Under the pieces are notes generated by a model that saw only the letters and a list, made by a program, of their open reading frames with translations, made no database searches and was not told the DNA's origin. Made by a program: the position numbers and the translations under genes. Source: Rothia sp. SD9660Na (GTDB lineage Bacteria > Actinomycetota > Actinomycetes > Actinomycetales > Micrococcaceae). From it: a DNA stretch of 64,000 nt. Positions within the stretch are counted from its first letter, which is position 1. Every line of letters begins with the position of its first letter. Below are positions 47,047-52,417 of the stretch, in pieces. The DNA is taken from assembly GCF_030064065.1 (NCBI RefSeq), contig NZ_CP125946.1, positions 62,001 through 126,000 on the forward strand, read 5' to 3'.

Positions 47047-48135
47047 GTGACCGATACGCCCGGCACCCAGCCGACCGAGAGCGTCCTAACCGAAAAGCGC
47101 GGCAGCCTGGGGGTTATCACCCTCAACCGCCCGCGCGCGGTCAACGCCCTCAACGCCGAGATGATGCAGCTGATGAACGCAGCCCTGGACGACTTCGAAC
47201 AGGACGCCGGCATCACCGCCGTGCTCCTGAGTGGCGCCGGTGAACGGGGTCTTTGTGCAGGCGGTGACGTGGTGGCCCTCTACAAGGCCACCGGCGAAAA
47301 CCCGGACCAGGGCGTGGACTTCTTCCGAGCGGAATACACTCTGGACCTGCGTATTTCCCGCTACCCCAAGCCCTTCATCTCCCTCATGGACGGCCTGGTG
47401 CTGGGCGGCGGCGTGGGCGTTTCAGCCCATAGCTCCCACCGCATCGTCACCGAACGCACCCGCACCGGCATGCCCGAAACCGTCATCGGCTTCTGCCCCG
47501 ACGTGGGCGGCCTCAACATCCTGGCCCGCGCCCCGCAGAACCTTGGCACCCTCATGGCTGTCACCGGCCTGCACGTGACCGGGGCGGACGCGCTCGCCGT
47601 TGGCATGGCTGATTATTTCGTGCCGTCTGAGAAGCTCGATGGCCTGGTCGCTGCCCTTGAGAAGGTCGAGGGGGCGGACGCCGTTACCCGCGTCATTGAG
47701 GGCTTTGCGGCTGACGCACTTCCCTCCCAACTCGTGGAGAACGCCCACTGGATTGAGGGTGCTTTTGCCGCTGATACCGTTGAAGAAATTCTTGAGAAGG
47801 TCCAGGCAGTGGCTGATTCGGGGGCAGGCGGCGCCGAGTTCGCCGTTACGGTTCTGGCGGCCCTGCAGAAGAACGGGCCGACCGGCATGAAGGTGGCCCT
47901 GGAAGCTGTGCGCCGGGCCGGTAGCCAGAGCTTGGCAGAGACCCTGAACCAGGATTTTATGACCTCCTGTAATGCCCTGGTCCATCACGATATGCGTGAG
48001 GGTATCCGGGCCCAGGTGGTCGATAAGGACCGCAACCCGCAGTGGTCCCCTGCCAGCCTGGCGGAGGTCTCGCGCGAGAGCGTCCTGGCCTTCTTTGTTC
48101 CTACGGAAGCGGGGGAGCTGGGTCTAAAGTCCTAG
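47047..48135 (+). CDS. 3-hydroxyisobutyryl-CoA hydrolase (crotonase family)
   Basis: A 362-residue crotonase-family hydrolase of valine degradation. Motifs: VITLNRPRAVNALNAEMMQL, the oxyanion segment GLCAGGDVVALY near residues 70-80, the GGGVGVSAHSSHRIVTERTR second oxyanion loop, and PETVIGFCPDVGG with the catalytic glutamate. The C-terminal extension ending AEAGELGLKS-like (PTEAGELGLKS) is typical of the hydrolase and absent from simple hydratases. GGAG precedes the GTG start. Its partners mmsA and mmsB are fragments, so the pathway as a whole is not functional from this locus. Confidence 0.88.
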   Translation: MTDTPGTQPTESVLTEKRGSLGVITLNRPRAVNALNAEMMQLMNAALDDFEQDAGITAVLLSGAGERGLCAGGDVVALYKATGENPDQGVDFFRAEYTLDLRISRYPKPFISLMDGLVLGGGVGVSAHSSHRIVTERTRTGMPETVIGFCPDVGGLNILARAPQNLGTLMAVTGLHVTGADALAVGMADYFVPSEKLDGLVAALEKVEGADAVTRVIEGFAADALPSQLVENAHWIEGAFAADTVEEILEKVQAVADSGAGGAEFAVTVLAALQKNGPTGMKVALEAVRRAGSQSLAETLNQDFMTSCNALVHHDMREGIRAQVVDKDRNPQWSPASLAEVSRESVLAFFVPTEAGELGLKS

Positions 48136-48161
48136 CCGGGTACTGTACTGCCTGCTACTTC

Positions 48162-48224
48162 ACCCCCTTGGTTCGCTCTTGACCCCCTTGATTTTCTTGG
48201 GGGTCAAGAGTGAACTGAGGGGGT
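48162..48224. terminator. Long hairpin terminator after the CoA hydrolase
   Basis: The arms 48162-48187 and 48199-48224 (ACCCCCTTGGTTCGCTC... with ...GAGTGAACTGAGGGGGT) form a ~26-bp stem with few mismatches, followed by TTATTTTTCTTT. It also abuts the end of the convergent membrane-protein gene. Confidence 0.8.
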
Positions 48225-48225
48225 G

Positions 48226-48447
48226 TTATTTTTCTTTGGGGCTTCTGCGCATCATTGCCATGGCGCGGATGGTGCTGTAGCCATGGATGGCGAAGCCTAT
48301 GAGAAAGAGGATGAGGCCGGGGAGGAAGAGCTCATTGTGTTTGTAGCCGTGGTAGCCGAGCATGATAAAGCCGGTGAGGGCTATGAGAACTCCTGCCCAG
48401 TAGGTTTTTGAGGTAAACATCTTTTTCATGATGTCTTTGTTGTTCAT
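48226..48447 (-). CDS. Small two-helix membrane protein, Rhs-cassette 1 (candidate immunity)
   Basis: A 73-residue protein beginning MNNKDIMKKMFTSKTYWAGV with two helices (AGVLIALTGFIMLGYHGY; LFLPGLILFLIGFAIHGYST). It is clearly paralogous to the 72-residue protein at 49068 (same MN.KDIMKKM.TSK.YW.GV opening, same HGYKHNELF loop). It overlaps the upstream 80-residue gene by ATGA and is the last gene of cassette 1. It probably protects against the cassette's toxin tip; that is inference from layout. Confidence 0.65.
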   Translation of the reverse strand: MNNKDIMKKMFTSKTYWAGVLIALTGFIMLGYHGYKHNELFLPGLILFLIGFAIHGYSTIRAMAMMRRSPKEK

Positions 48448-48686
48448 TTTAGTAGTCCGTATTGTCCGAAAAGTAGCAGGTAGAGGAAAGCTAGTAATCC
48501 AAGGACGTTAGGCCCTACCGTTGTGAGGTATCTGCCTGCCGGGGTAGGGTTTTTGAAAATCATGGTTTCTGGCCAGACTGCCGGGTTTCCTTCTCTGATA
48601 TTCTTTCGGGTGCGAAAGTAGAAGAAGGGTATCGTAAATAATGTACCGATGATGAAGCAGATATATACGTAATGAATAATTGTCAT
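48444..48686 (-). CDS. Small membrane protein, Rhs-cassette 1 (candidate immunity)
   Basis: An 80-residue protein with one N-terminal helix (VYICFIIGTLFTIPFFYFRT), a basic loop, and a C-terminal helix (VGPNVLGLLAFLYLLLFGQY). It has the same position and general topology as the 75-residue protein at 49283 in cassette 2, though sequence similarity is weaker. It starts 17 bases after the toxin tip and overlaps the next gene by four bases. No database family was recognised. Confidence 0.6.
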   Translation of the reverse strand: MTIIHYVYICFIIGTLFTIPFFYFRTRKNIREGNPAVWPETMIFKNPTPAGRYLTTVGPNVLGLLAFLYLLLFGQYGLLK

Positions 48687-48703
48687 AAAGGTATTCTGAG
48701 TTT

Positions 48704-48937
48704 CTAGTTAACGGGTAGGGGAATGTTGAAGCTAAGGTTTGCACTGCAACCAAGGCCAAGCCCGGCAACGCCGCCGATGGCTCCGCTTTTGGGTGGGAAG
48801 CTCAAATCCAATCCTATGCCAAGATTAAGGTCAGCAAAATTTGCATTGTGAATGTCGTCGATGGATCCCCCTATATTGAGACAGAGAATGTAACAAGAGT
48901 TGAGGCCAACCTGGGTAGCTAATCCTGATGGGTCCAT
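48704..48937 (-). CDS. Orphan Rhs tip 1: glycine-rich putative toxin domain
   Basis: A 77-residue frame beginning at the end-of-core motif MDPSGLA, which is where polymorphic Rhs/RHS-repeat toxins switch to their variable C-terminal toxin. The tip has a CYILC cysteine pair and a strongly glycine/leucine-rich beta-like stretch (NLGIGLDLSFPPKSGAIGGV, then LGLGCSANLSFNI). It resembles tip 2 at 49516 in layout. The core preceding it is a short fragment in another frame, so it would be made, if at all, as a free peptide from the ATG. The toxin role, probably membrane-acting, is inferred. Confidence 0.55.
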   Translation of the reverse strand: MDPSGLATQVGLNSCYILCLNIGGSIDDIHNANFADLNLGIGLDLSFPPKSGAIGGVAGLGLGCSANLSFNIPLPVN

Positions 48938-49060
48938 ACACCCTGGTTTGGGTCATACCAGCGGACACCGAAGAGGAAGCGACCCATGCCACCTCGGTCA
49001 ACGAGCCCAAAACGGTAGAGGAAGGGGTCAAACTTATCCCGGTCAGATGGTACATGTTGG
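48928..49060 (-). pseudogene. Rhs core C-terminal fragment
   Basis: In a separate frame the sequence reads DKFDPFLYRFGLVDRGGMGR and FLFGVRWYDPNQGVWTHQD, then a stop. The FGVRWYDPNQGVWT pattern matches the last YD/Rhs repeat of RHS-family proteins. The ~25 residues normally lying between it and DPSGL (the NRYAYAGNDPIN segment) have been deleted, which shifts the frame onto the tip at 48937. The rest of the Rhs protein is absent. Confidence 0.65.
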
Positions 49061-49067
49061 TGAGTCT

Positions 49068-49286
49068 TTATTTTTGGGGCTTTCTGTACATCATTATCAT
49101 GGCGCGGATGGTGTTGTAGCCGTGGATAAAGAAACCAATGAGGAAGATGGCAAGCCCAGGTATGAAGAGCTCATTGTGCTTATACCCGTGGTGGCCGAGC
49201 ATGATAAAGCCAGCAAGCATAATCATCACGCCTACCCAGTAGATTTTTGAGGTAAGCATTTTTTTCATGATGTCTTTACTATTCAT
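49068..49286 (-). CDS. Small two-helix membrane protein, Rhs-cassette 2 (candidate immunity)
   Basis: A 72-residue paralogue of the 48226 protein, beginning MNSKDIMKKMLTSKIYWVGV, with helices MIMLAGFIMLGHHGYK and LAIFLIGFFIHGYNTIRA. The clear similarity between the two copies shows that the cassettes share an origin. It overlaps the upstream 75-residue gene by ATGA. Candidate immunity protein. Confidence 0.65.
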   Translation of the reverse strand: MNSKDIMKKMLTSKIYWVGVMIMLAGFIMLGHHGYKHNELFIPGLAIFLIGFFIHGYNTIRAMIMMYRKPQK

Positions 49287-49510
49287 TTGAGTAACTCCGT
49301 TATGACCCAGAGCAATCCCATAAGAGCAAACCCAAGAGCTGTTCCTGCATAAAATAGTTTGTCTTTGAAAGTTCCAGGCTCTATACCAGGTAGAAAGAAC
49401 CCACCACGTTTTCCGCTTACGCGGTCTGGATAAACTTTTATCCTGTAGATGAATACAGGAATTCCTATCAGGAATGCAATTGTTCCGATTGTTATGACTG
49501 AAATATTCAT
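49283..49510 (-). CDS. Small membrane protein, Rhs-cassette 2 (candidate immunity)
   Basis: A 75-residue protein with an N-terminal helix (MNISVITIGTIAFLIGIPVF), a basic loop and a C-terminal helix (LFYAGTALGFALMGLLWVIT). It occupies the same place in cassette 2 as the 80-residue protein does in cassette 1, five bases after the toxin tip. Function inferred only from layout. Confidence 0.6.
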   Translation of the reverse strand: MNISVITIGTIAFLIGIPVFIYRIKVYPDRVSGKRGGFFLPGIEPGTFKDKLFYAGTALGFALMGLLWVITELLK

Positions 49511-49515
49511 TTTTT

Positions 49516-49866
49516 CTACTTTACAGGCCAGGAGATTCCATAGGTTGTAGAAGCACCGCCTCCTAAGCCTAATAAAATTCCTCCGTAGAGGTCATTATCG
49601 CTTAGTGAATTAGCACTGCCGCCACCTTCTAATCCAAACCCGTAGGCTCCGCCTGCTGAGCCTGAGGCAGACCATGAAAACTTCTCCACAGGATTTCCAG
49701 TGGTTCTTCCGATAAAGACACCAGCGCTAAGTTCTGCTCCAGCTCCGAATTCAAGACCAAGTGAAACATCTTCACCGTCGTCGGAAGCAATAATAGTGAA
49801 ACTGCCACATGTGCCTGCACACATGCCAAATCCGAATTGCCATGCAGCTAATCCCGCTGGATCCAT
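49516..49866 (-). CDS. Orphan Rhs tip 2: glycine-rich putative toxin domain
   Basis: A 116-residue frame from MDPAGLAAWQFGFGMCAGTC. The DPAGL motif marks the junction of an Rhs core with its variable C-terminal domain. The remainder is Gly/Ser/Ala-rich with alternating hydrophobics (SLGLEFGAGAELSAGVFIGR, then GGAYGFGLEGGGSANSLSD), suggesting a beta-structured or pore-forming peptide. A cysteine pair follows the DPxGLA motif, as in tip 1. No Rhs core remains upstream; a large hairpin begins directly before it. A GTG four codons earlier is an alternative start. Confidence 0.55.
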   Translation of the reverse strand: MDPAGLAAWQFGFGMCAGTCGSFTIIASDDGEDVSLGLEFGAGAELSAGVFIGRTTGNPVEKFSWSASGSAGGAYGFGLEGGGSANSLSDNDLYGGILLGLGGGASTTYGISWPVK

Positions 49867-49876
49867 ACACCCCACC

Positions 49877-49945
49877 ACGAATGTGACTCATATTCCCGAA
49901 AGGGTGTTGTTTTAACGCCCGCTTGGGAATATGAGTCACATTCGT
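49877..49945. repeat. Perfect 21-bp inverted repeat with nested hairpin
   Basis: The arm at 49877-49897 (ACGAATGTGACTCATATTCCC) is exactly inverted at 49925-49945. The loop contains a second stem, GGGTGTT / AACGCCC. It separates orphan tip 2 from the acyl-CoA synthetase fragment and could be a terminator or a recombination scar. Confidence 0.75.
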
Positions 49946-49965
49946 TGTAGAGGGAGATAGCTTGC

Positions 49966-50287
49966 CTAGCCCCTGAGGTCCGGGAAGCCCGTGTCGGCGA
50001 ACTCGTGGTCGTAGCCCTCGCTGGTGGTGCGGGCGGCCAGAGCTGCGGCGCTCTTCTCGCCGTGTCGGCCGTAGAACTCGTTCTCACGGGCCCGCAGTTC
50101 CACACGGCGAATCTTGCCCGAAATGGTCTTGGGCAGCTCGTAGAACTCAATGCGGCGCACCCGCTTGTAGGCAGCCAGGTGGTCGCGGGCGTACTTGAGA
50201 ATATCCTTAGCAGTCTCAGCCGTTGGCTCACGCCCAGCAGCAAGCACAACGTAGGCCTTGGGCACAGCCAGGCGGATTTCGTCGGGT
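49966..50287 (-). pseudogene. Acyl-CoA synthetase (AMP-binding), C-terminal fragment
   Basis: About 107 codons of the C-terminal domain of an AMP-forming acyl-CoA synthetase: DEIRLAVPKAYVVLAAGREP, then AKDILKYARDHLAAYKRVRR, and IEFYELPKTISGKIRRVELR with the catalytic lysine of the A10 motif. The adenylate-forming N-terminal domain is missing. The 5' breakpoint coincides with that of the divergent mmsB fragment. Confidence 0.8.
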
Positions 50288-50516
50288 GAGGGAAGCCAAC
50301 CGCGACTACGAACCTGGCTTCGCTACCGCCCTCATGAGCAAGGACATGGGCCTGGCAGTTGCTGCCCTCGACACCGCAGGGGTCAACGGCGAACTCGGCA
50401 AGCGCGCCGCAGATATCTATACTCACCTAGTAGAAGAAGGGCGCGGCACCAAGGACTTCTCAGACGTCATTAACGCCATTCGTGAGGCCGACGGCTCACC
50501 CGTCTCAGGTATCTAA
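50288..50516 (+). pseudogene. mmsB: 3-hydroxyisobutyrate dehydrogenase, C-terminal fragment
   Basis: About 75 codons of the helical C-terminal domain of MmsB: NRDYEPGFATALMSKDMGLA, then [20 protein letters not shown] and [16 protein letters not shown]. The NAD-binding Rossmann domain is absent. It ends 26 bases before the intact enoyl-CoA hydratase gene, as in intact valine operons. The longer open frame upstream belongs to the opposite-strand synthetase relic and has no family similarity. Confidence 0.8.
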
Positions 50517-51408: not shown

Positions 51409-51698
51409 GTGAGCGTAACCCACCCCATGCTTGAACGCAATCACGCCAGCGACTGGATGGGCATTCGCGTGCTCACCGCCCAGAGCATCACTGTGGGGCG
51501 GCAGGCGTCGACGTTAACTACATCGCCTCAGCCTACGAAGGGCAAACCCTACGAGCAGAAGCGAACCTCACAGCACAGTACGGGCGCAACAGCATCGTTG
51601 ATGTGACCGCCACCTGCGGAGACAAACTCATCGCCGAGTTCCGCGGTCGTGGCCGCTCCATCAAGCCCCCAACAGCCACGGAAGGACACCAGGCATGA
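51409..51698 (+). pseudogene. paaI: Phenylacetate-pathway thioesterase PaaI, internal deletion
   Basis: The first frame from a GTG with GGAGG upstream gives the PaaI N-terminus MLERNHASDWMGIRVLTAQS. It then breaks; the C-terminal half continues in another frame as AGVDVNYIASAYEGQTLRAE, ANLTAQYGRNSIVDVTATCG, KLIAEFRGRGRSI. The hot-dog core helix with the catalytic Asp and HGG motif (~45 residues) is deleted. Its stop overlaps the paaK start by ATGA. Confidence 0.8.
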
Positions 51699-52417
51699 GT
51701 ACCTACAAGGCCCCCTCTTGCAGCGTAGAAAACCCCTACACCCCGGCCCCTCGAGCCGCAGACCCCGGCGCTCCGGACCCCGAGGAGCTGATGAGTCGCG
51801 ACCAGATTGAGGCCCTCCAGTTCGAGCGCCTGCGCTGGACCCTGCACTACGCCTACGAAAACGTGCCCGCCTACAAGGTACACAACGCCTACGGCTACGG
51901 CCTCTTCACCGGCGGCCTGGGTGCCCACTACGGTGCTGAACATCTGGGTGCGGCCGTCATTCCTATGTCTGGCGGCCAGACCGAAAAGCAGGTTCAGCTC
52001 ATTCGCGACTTTGAGCCCGATGCGATTCTCTCCACCCCCACCTACCTGCTGACCATCGCCGACGCCTTCCGCAAGCTGGGCATTGACCCCAAGGAAACCT
52101 CTCTCAAGACCGCTGTGCTGGGTGCTGAGCCCTGGACCCAAGAAATGCGCCGCGAAATTATCGACCCCTTCGATGACACCGTGCTCGATCTAGGCTGCCC
52201 CGGCCGCATGGATGAGATGACTGTGCGCATCTAACGCCGCGAAGAGTTCACCCTAGAAGCCGCCGAAGAGGCCGGTAAGCGTCTGCTGCACGATATCAAG
52301 ACCAAGATTGGTTCTACCTGCCGTATCGAGGTGCTGGACCCGGACGTCCTGCCCCGCTCCGTCGGCAAGATCCGCCGTATCTACGACTACCGCAACAAGC
52401 CCAAGGGCAACGAATAA
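51695..52417 (+). pseudogene. paaK: Phenylacetate-CoA ligase PaaK, deletion and internal stop
   Basis: The N-terminus (LMSRDQIEALQFERLRWTLH, YAYENVPAYK) is joined directly to a later block (VHNAYGYGLFTGGLGAHYGA, EHLGAAVIPMSGGQTEKQVQ), losing the ATP-loop region. A second jump joins DTVLDLGC to PGRMDEMTVRI, followed by an in-frame TAA at 52231; the C-terminal domain continues beyond as REEFTLEAAEEAGKRLLHDI and LPRSVGKIRRIYDYRNKPKG. About 240 of ~430 residues remain. The gene cannot make an active ligase. Confidence 0.85.

What the first reader, a model, noticed from the sequence alone, without database searches (positions are those of the whole stretch)
48226..49945. Tandem orphan Rhs-tip cassettes with glycine-rich tips and paired tiny membrane proteins
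Two successive minus-strand cassettes have the same plan: a frame starting at the Rhs end-of-core motif DPxGLA, a cysteine pair, a Gly-rich beta-like domain, then two small membrane proteins overlapping by ATGA. The last genes (48226 and 49068) are obvious paralogues. A stub of the Rhs core survives before tip 1. Rhs loci are known to accumulate displaced tip/immunity modules; a membrane-acting tip guarded by two membrane proteins is a combination I do not recognise. The toxin may be a pore-former or membrane-disrupting peptide.
Basis: partly seen in the sequence, partly recalled or inferred. Interest (0 to 1): 0.75.

Follow-up and report, generated by a model that had tools for sequence, protein, structure and literature searches.

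The report
Displaced Rhs toxin-tip and immunity cassettes
Two stray cassettes, each with the tip of a bacterial Rhs toxin and two tiny membrane proteins that probably protect against it, sit in a genome in which no Rhs delivery protein was found, and their relatives point to an unnamed toxin-tip family with membrane-bound immunity in actinobacteria.

Summary
Window 48127-49867 is a low-GC insert with two minus-strand cassettes of tip, C (first small protein) and D (second). Two close relatives read there have an empty site. Searches of the host genome found no Rhs beyond a 44-residue core stub in the insert.

Related tips end long Rhs/WapA-type proteins in other Rothia, other Micrococcaceae and Streptomyces. 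They share CxxxC and two further cysteines. Pfam, NCBIfam, PADLOC and PDB sequence searches found no family for the window tips. In 13 of 14 tip loci with readable downstream DNA a small multi-helix membrane protein follows within 600 nt; controls gave 2 of 37 and 5 of 24. In six loci C and D follow in fixed order with opposite predicted orientation.

Best reading: displaced Rhs tip/immunity modules, acquired as a block and kept for immunity. D is under purifying selection like its housekeeping neighbour, while both orphan tips lack cysteines present in 25 of 25 complete attached tips. Toxicity, membrane action and immunity are inferred, not shown. The tips are acidic and lack a hydrophobic helix, so a helical pore is unlikely. 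This is a new tip family and immunity arrangement within a known kind of system.

The parts
48127..49867 (.). whole insert, absent from relatives at this site
   Evidence: G273 and G184 DNA runs from the base matching 48126 to the base matching 49868 with about 15 nt between; low GC
49516..49866 (-). tip A, orphan Rhs tip, 116 aa from ATG; CxxxC kept, the other two cysteines absent
   Evidence: the same 116-aa protein, 99% identical, is in the protein database as P0002
49283..49510 (-). C1, 75-aa two-helix membrane protein, long positive loop
   Evidence: 49% identical to the protein behind the G059 Rhs; topology
49068..49286 (-). D1, 72-aa two-helix membrane protein, short loop, positive tails
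48913..49044 (-). stub of the end of an Rhs core, out of frame with tip B
   Evidence: 75% identical to G059 Rhs residues 893-936, one stop
48704..48937 (-). tip B, orphan Rhs tip, 77 aa; middle part with the third cysteine missing
48444..48686 (-). C2, 80-aa two-helix membrane protein, long positive loop
   Evidence: same position and topology as C1; sequence similarity to C1 not significant
48226..48447 (-). D2, 73-aa two-helix membrane protein
   Evidence: 75% identical to D1; dN/dS 0.18 against the Ca. Rothia avicola D
49874..49948 (.). hairpin at the upstream edge of the insert, native to the spacer
   Evidence: inverted repeat, fold z -9.05, present in G273 and G184, three other places in the genome
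48161..48225 (.). hairpin at the downstream edge
   Evidence: inverted repeat; shared with Ca. Rothia avicola, similar one in G132

Best explanation
Two displaced Rhs tip/immunity modules, taken up as one low-GC block into the spacer between two convergent genes of a Rothia genome in which no Rhs delivery protein was found. Shown: related tips end long Rhs/WapA-type proteins, and small two-helix membrane proteins follow them. Inferred: in the intact systems the Rhs shell is exported by Sec, its tip is held by disulfides outside the cell and acts at the membrane or envelope of a neighbour (beta-type insertion or binding of a membrane target rather than a helical pore); C and D, inserted in the membrane in opposite orientations, block it. 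In this window the tips are probably relics and C/D are kept as immunity against neighbours that use such tips.
For: Attached relatives in G059, G343, G243, G269, G164, G589, G719, G654, P0003 and 17 Streptomyces proteins; profile match between Micrococcaceae and Streptomyces tips at 97.5% against at most 2.5% in 20 controls. Followers with two or more helices in 13 of 14 loci against 2 of 37 and 5 of 24. Opposite predicted orientation of C and D. Empty site in relatives. No Rhs in the own genome but the stub. D dN/dS 0.18 (0.06-0.37), neighbour 0.16. Four cysteines in 25 of 25 complete attached tips but 2 of 5 orphans.
Against: No toxicity, expression or immunity datum. No promoter above chance was found. 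A D relative occurs without a nearby Rhs in G214. D relatives were found in only 3 of 395 family genomes, and the D genes behind G059, G287, G164 and G1088 are not clearly homologous to it by sequence. G589 has no two-helix follower. Two orphan tips (G243b, G719b) keep four cysteines, so loss is not general; by lineage the difference is only p 0.045. C and tip similarities do not track each other.
Confidence: 0.55

Rival explanations
1. Neutral relics: the block is decaying and has no function in this strain.
For: Stub out of frame, tip B shortened, cysteines gone; no promoter above chance; neighbouring genes are also decaying.
Against: Six open frames; D dN/dS 0.18 with upper bound 0.37; tip A is found again as the same protein in other records.
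Confidence: 0.17
2. The orphan tips are still made inside the cell and work with C/D as a toxin-antitoxin pair, as reported for an orphan Rhs of Salmonella (PMC7043789, search listing only).
For: Both tips have ATG starts exactly at the junction and run close to C.
Against: Tips lack conserved cysteines; attached forms look exported; membrane proteins are unusual antidotes for a cytoplasmic toxin; a strong hairpin sits directly before tip A.
Confidence: 0.1
3. The tip is not a toxin but a surface or receptor-binding end of the Rhs protein, and the small membrane proteins help export or anchoring.
For: Gly-rich, acidic, cysteine-bearing extracellular-looking domain without catalytic signature; SLH-domain genes lie upstream in three loci.
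Against: Position after DPxG, strong variation and orphan copies with their small genes are the pattern of toxin tips; arrays of such small genes in G243, G269 and G343 look like immunity arrays.
Confidence: 0.12

Closest known systems
Orphan CdiA-CT/CdiI and Rhs-CT/RhsI modules (PMC3150448, passages seen; PMC3967940, search listing only)
   Same: Fragment of a delivery protein with its boundary motif, a tip and downstream immunity gene, in tandem, without a delivery protein of their own.
   Different: The known orphans described lie downstream of a full-length gene and generally lack translation starts; here the block is an insert with no Rhs gene found in the genome, both tips have ATG starts, and two membrane genes follow each tip.
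WapA-type Rhs toxins of Gram-positives (PMC12704120, passages seen)
   Same: Attached relatives are long Rhs proteins with Sec-like signal peptides; orphans occur there too.
   Different: Known B. subtilis WapA tips are tRNases (same paper); this tip has no nuclease-like match and is followed by membrane proteins.
CdiA-CT/CdiI of E. coli EC93 (PMC8190604, passages; PMC3482391, table passage)
   Same: Works-like analogy: tip that dissipates membrane potential, immunity protein with two transmembrane helices.
   Different: Different delivery, no sequence match found; here two small proteins, and membrane action is not shown.
Tse5 of P. aeruginosa, an Rhs pore-forming tip (PMC10684867, passages seen)
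   Same: Rhs-delivered tip with a membrane target.
   Different: Delivered by type VI secretion; here tips are acidic, Gly-rich, cysteine-bearing, without a hydrophobic helix.
Orphan immunity genes and acquired defence arrays (PMC10539506, passages; PMC12247911, search listing only)
   Same: Immunity kept without the matching weapon; arrays of immunity genes in relatives.
   Different: Here tip remains travel along and the proteins are membrane hairpins.

Membership tests
Rhs/WapA polymorphic toxin, orphan tip/immunity module | Tip homologous to the end of a full Rhs/YD-repeat protein, after DPxG | tested here: met
Rhs/WapA polymorphic toxin, orphan tip/immunity module | Remnant of the Rhs core upstream | tested here: met
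   Before tip B only, 44 residues; before tip A about 27 nt around the junction
Rhs/WapA polymorphic toxin, orphan tip/immunity module | Small gene directly downstream of the tip in attached relatives | tested here: met
   13 of 14 loci, attached and orphan together
Rhs/WapA polymorphic toxin, orphan tip/immunity module | Tip inhibits growth and the downstream protein blocks it | not testable with these tools
   needs expression tests
Orphan module downstream of a full Rhs gene | Full-length Rhs gene next to it or in the genome | tested here: not met
   no match but the stub
Imm-CdiI / Imm17 two-helix immunity families | Match to a described immunity family | tested here: not met
   No immunity family among Pfam hits at E up to 10 or NCBIfam at E up to 1
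Imm17 | Two helices with WxW and an R between them (PMC3482391, passage) | tested here: not met
   Two helices yes; no WxW in C1, C2, D1 or D2 (sequences, read by eye)
Tox-WTIP pore-forming tip | Two membrane-spanning helices, RxxR and WxxIP-type motif (PMC3482391, passage) | tested here: not met
   No 19-residue stretch above mean hydropathy 1.61 in 30 listed tips
Lactococcin 972-like bacteriocin (recalled as a beta bacteriocin with membrane immunity) | Match to a Pfam or NCBIfam family | tested here: not met
   No family for either tip at E up to 10 in Pfam or up to 1 in NCBIfam

The most novel reading that the evidence does not exclude
A new class of Gram-positive contact weapon: a disulfide-locked, acidic, Gly-rich beta tip acts on the membrane from outside, and immunity needs a pair of two-helix proteins inserted in opposite orientations (C with its loop inside, D with its tails inside) that form one blocking complex. 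C is the changing, tip-specific half and D the more constant half, and D together with the DPxG junction serves as the arms by which new tip/C pairs are swapped into a locus.
Probability: 0.2. Interest if true: 0.72.

Novelty: new variant of a known kind. Interest (0 to 1): 0.52.

Why it matters
It adds an unnamed tip family with a clear signature (CxxxC plus two more cysteines, mostly after DPxG) to the Rhs/WapA proteins of actinobacteria and ties it to a two-gene membrane immunity arrangement; the 2012 survey passage I saw (PMC3482391) names only two two-helix immunity families. The pairs can be tested in laboratory strains. It also shows an orphan tip/immunity block at a site away from any Rhs gene, in a genome where no delivery protein was found, with one of the small genes under purifying selection.

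Tried and rejected
Pfam, NCBIfam and PADLOC on the window's tips and small proteins gave no family over its cut-off, only weak matches of small membrane proteins to unrelated membrane models; the same for small proteins of relatives. PDB by sequence: none for the tip profile, one weak match (E 0.1) for the C profile. AlphaFold of tip A with 17 sequences (mean pLDDT 45.6) and of P0005 with 20 (56.8, tip about 25-43) was too poor, so no fold search was made. A protein search with tip A alone found only its own copy P0002, since candidate length is limited; searching long proteins by region found one and 17. I considered that C similarity tracks tip similarity; the scores do not support it. I considered the upstream hairpin as the end of a mobile element; it is native to the spacer of relatives. 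The C profile (A2) hit G000, G059, G287 and G343 clearly; three of these built the profile, so only G343 is independent.

Dropped before counts: from the cysteine count G343 C134 and C36 (cut by contig ends) and G287 (frame change in the tip). G654 and P0005 have the same tip and both stand in the 25; several Streptomyces tips are identical or nearly so, which is why a by-lineage test is given too. G1088 was added to the follower count, not by the script. That script skips a gene whose frame is open through the tip's end, so it names D1, not C1, behind tip A. Three of 27 other-tip loci were too short and left out. The 8 of 66 control includes the family's own loci. Hits of G066, G107, G188, G261 and a second one of G269 (E 0.006-0.008), and the weak single-tip hits, were not followed up except G101, G337 and G214, whose stretches showed nothing relevant but the D relative of G214.

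Full report
What is there. On the minus strand of 48226-49866 lie two cassettes of the same plan. Cassette A: tip A 49516-49866, C1 49283-49510, D1 49068-49286. Cassette B: core stub, tip B 48704-48937, C2 48444-48686, D2 48226-48447. Each C/D pair overlaps by ATGA. D1 and D2 are 78% identical in DNA, and 27 nt around the DPxG junction are 89% identical. So the ends of the two cassettes are alike, while the tips (44% identical over 73 aligned codons) and the C genes (no significant similarity, z 1.5) differ. GC falls to 40-50% from about 60%. The genus is inferred: the genome G301, same genus as the window, matches a contig of Candidatus Rothia avicola.

The tips are Rhs tips. G059, same genus, has a 1075-aa frame with Rhs repeats and the Rhs core domain at 880-962; its last part is homologous to both orphan tips (z 8.8 and 10.0). 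It is followed by 78- and 63-aa membrane proteins, the first 49% identical to C1. In G059 the signal-like N-terminus lies in a separate short frame upstream, so that gene may itself be interrupted near its start. P0003, a 1141-aa database protein, has the same tip at 70% identity. A profile of these tips matched the own genome and 10 others of 395 in the family at E 0.01 or better; of those I read G059, G287, G343, G243, G269 and G164, and four with E 0.006-0.008 were left unread. A wider profile matched 3 others of 394 in the class and 4 others of 396 in the order, G1088 being new. The G654 protein led to 17 Streptomyces Rhs or wall-associated proteins. Profile comparison joins Micrococcaceae-level and Streptomyces tips at 97.5% probability; 20 controls (one reversed, 19 shuffled) reached at most 2.5%; the aligned part includes the DPxG that belongs to the Rhs boundary. 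The family is thus spread but sparse.

Signature. DPxG, then C-x3-C, then two further cysteines; G719 and G1088 have another stretch in place of a plain DPxG start. All 18 database proteins and all 7 complete attached tips of the genome loci have four cysteines. Of five orphan tips, G243b and G719b have four, tip B three, tip A and G1088 two. Fisher p is 0.0025 over all and 0.045 by lineage. In 30 listed tips glycine is 15-26%, acidic residues outnumber basic ones in every one, and no 19-residue stretch exceeds a mean hydropathy of 1.61. Both low-confidence models show six strands and no helix in the tip. N-termini that read like Sec signal peptides are seen in P0003, P0005, G343, G589, G654, G243, G164, G269 and G719 (by eye); some database entries start later and lack one.

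What follows the tips. Within 600 nt downstream on the same strand, 12 of 13 tip loci have an ORF of 45-165 aa with at least two hydrophobic helices; G1088 makes 13 of 14. The miss is G589. Controls: 2 of 37 ORF ends in the window, 5 of 24 testable other Rhs tips of the genus (27 tried, 3 too short), 8 of 66 ORF ends in loci that include the family itself; Fisher p 3e-9 and 2e-5 for the first two. In six loci (window twice, G059, G287, G164, G1088) a first gene C and a second gene D follow. In these C has a helix near each end and a 31-37 residue loop; over nine first genes the loop is 22-37 residues and net positive in 8. D has a 7-10 residue loop; both tails are positive in 5 of 6 and only the C-terminal one in G164. 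By the positive-inside rule (established knowledge) C and D would insert in opposite orientations. I assigned the classes by gene order. G343 C36, G243 and G269 carry longer runs of such genes, not all of which fit C or D; in G343 C36 a C-like/D-like pair stands without a tip directly before it.

Where the block sits. In G273 and G184 the DNA runs from the base matching 48126 to that matching 49868 with about 15 nt between. In five more relatives the DNA match stops at or within 4 bases of the same place (not read further), and G132 has no cassette there. Ca. Rothia avicola shares the D end at this site and its contig stops at the start of D. So the block was inserted between convergent genes at the edge of a hairpin, in the lineage of this strain and Ca. 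R. avicola. The own genome has no Rhs repeat match, no core-domain match and, with a long Rhs protein as query, only the stub.

What is selected. D2 against the Ca. R. avicola D has dN/dS 0.18 (bootstrap 0.06-0.37), D1-D2 0.19 (0.08-0.42); the neighbouring crotonase-type gene has 0.16. The dS of D2 (0.46) is twice that of the neighbour (0.22), which hints at exchange. Tips and C could not be tested this way (synonymous sites saturated).

Mechanism. Shown: a tip family at the end of Rhs proteins; membrane followers; insertion at this site; no delivery protein found; selection on D. Inferred: toxicity; disulfides; action at the membrane or envelope; immunity by C and D; immunity as the reason the block was kept. 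The closest working analogy is the EC93 CdiA-CT, which dissipates membrane potential (PMC8190604, passages), with its two-helix CdiI (PMC3482391, table passage). The closest evolutionary analogies are orphan CDI/Rhs modules (PMC3150448, passages) and an orphan Rhs immunity protein shown to protect Serratia (PMC10539506, passages).

Novelty. The window tips and small proteins match no family over cut-off in Pfam, NCBIfam or PADLOC. The paper searches (open-access library only) listed no paper that I recognised as describing this tip or this pair; PMC3482391 was seen in passages only, and its supplements were not seen. Rhs genes of Rothia mucilaginosa are mentioned in PMC3667864 (passages) without this tip being described there.

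Noticed in passing
window 50286-50303: Two gene ends meet here: relatives G273 and G184 have about 4.5 kb more between the same matches (acyl-CoA synthetase, acyl-CoA dehydrogenase and dehydrogenase-type genes), so this genome has lost that stretch.
   Followed up: partly
window 51695-52234: Broken ligase-type gene; G184 and G132 have a 457-aa frame at the same place.
   Followed up: no
window 49874-49948: Long hairpin (fold z -9.05) with similar DNA at three other places in the genome near C4 2254232, 2279552 and 2280431.
   Followed up: partly
L101:6012-9260: G243, another genus: full Rhs with this tip, then a copied core end with a second tip, then a run of five small membrane genes, an immunity-array-like layout.
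   Followed up: partly
L137:2580-3984: G1088, another family: an orphan Rhs core end with the tip, an 82-aa and a 95-aa membrane gene behind it, beside a helicase-like gene; an independent orphan of the same plan.
   Followed up: partly
L037:6154-6774, L038:10661-11053, L101:2175-2825: Genes with SLH domains lie directly upstream of the Rhs gene in all three loci examined for this; a possible surface anchor.
   Followed up: partly
L042:7489-7890: 133-aa membrane protein in G214 related to D (z 15-18), with no Rhs frame seen in the 15 kb around it.
   Followed up: partly
L048 and L074 (G313, G173): Same Rhs core end and same short tip start followed by transposase-like genes, as if Rhs genes had been cut by insertion.
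   Followed up: no
L050:1501-2527 (G287): Rhs tip of this family split over two frames, with C-like and D-like genes still behind it.
   Followed up: partly
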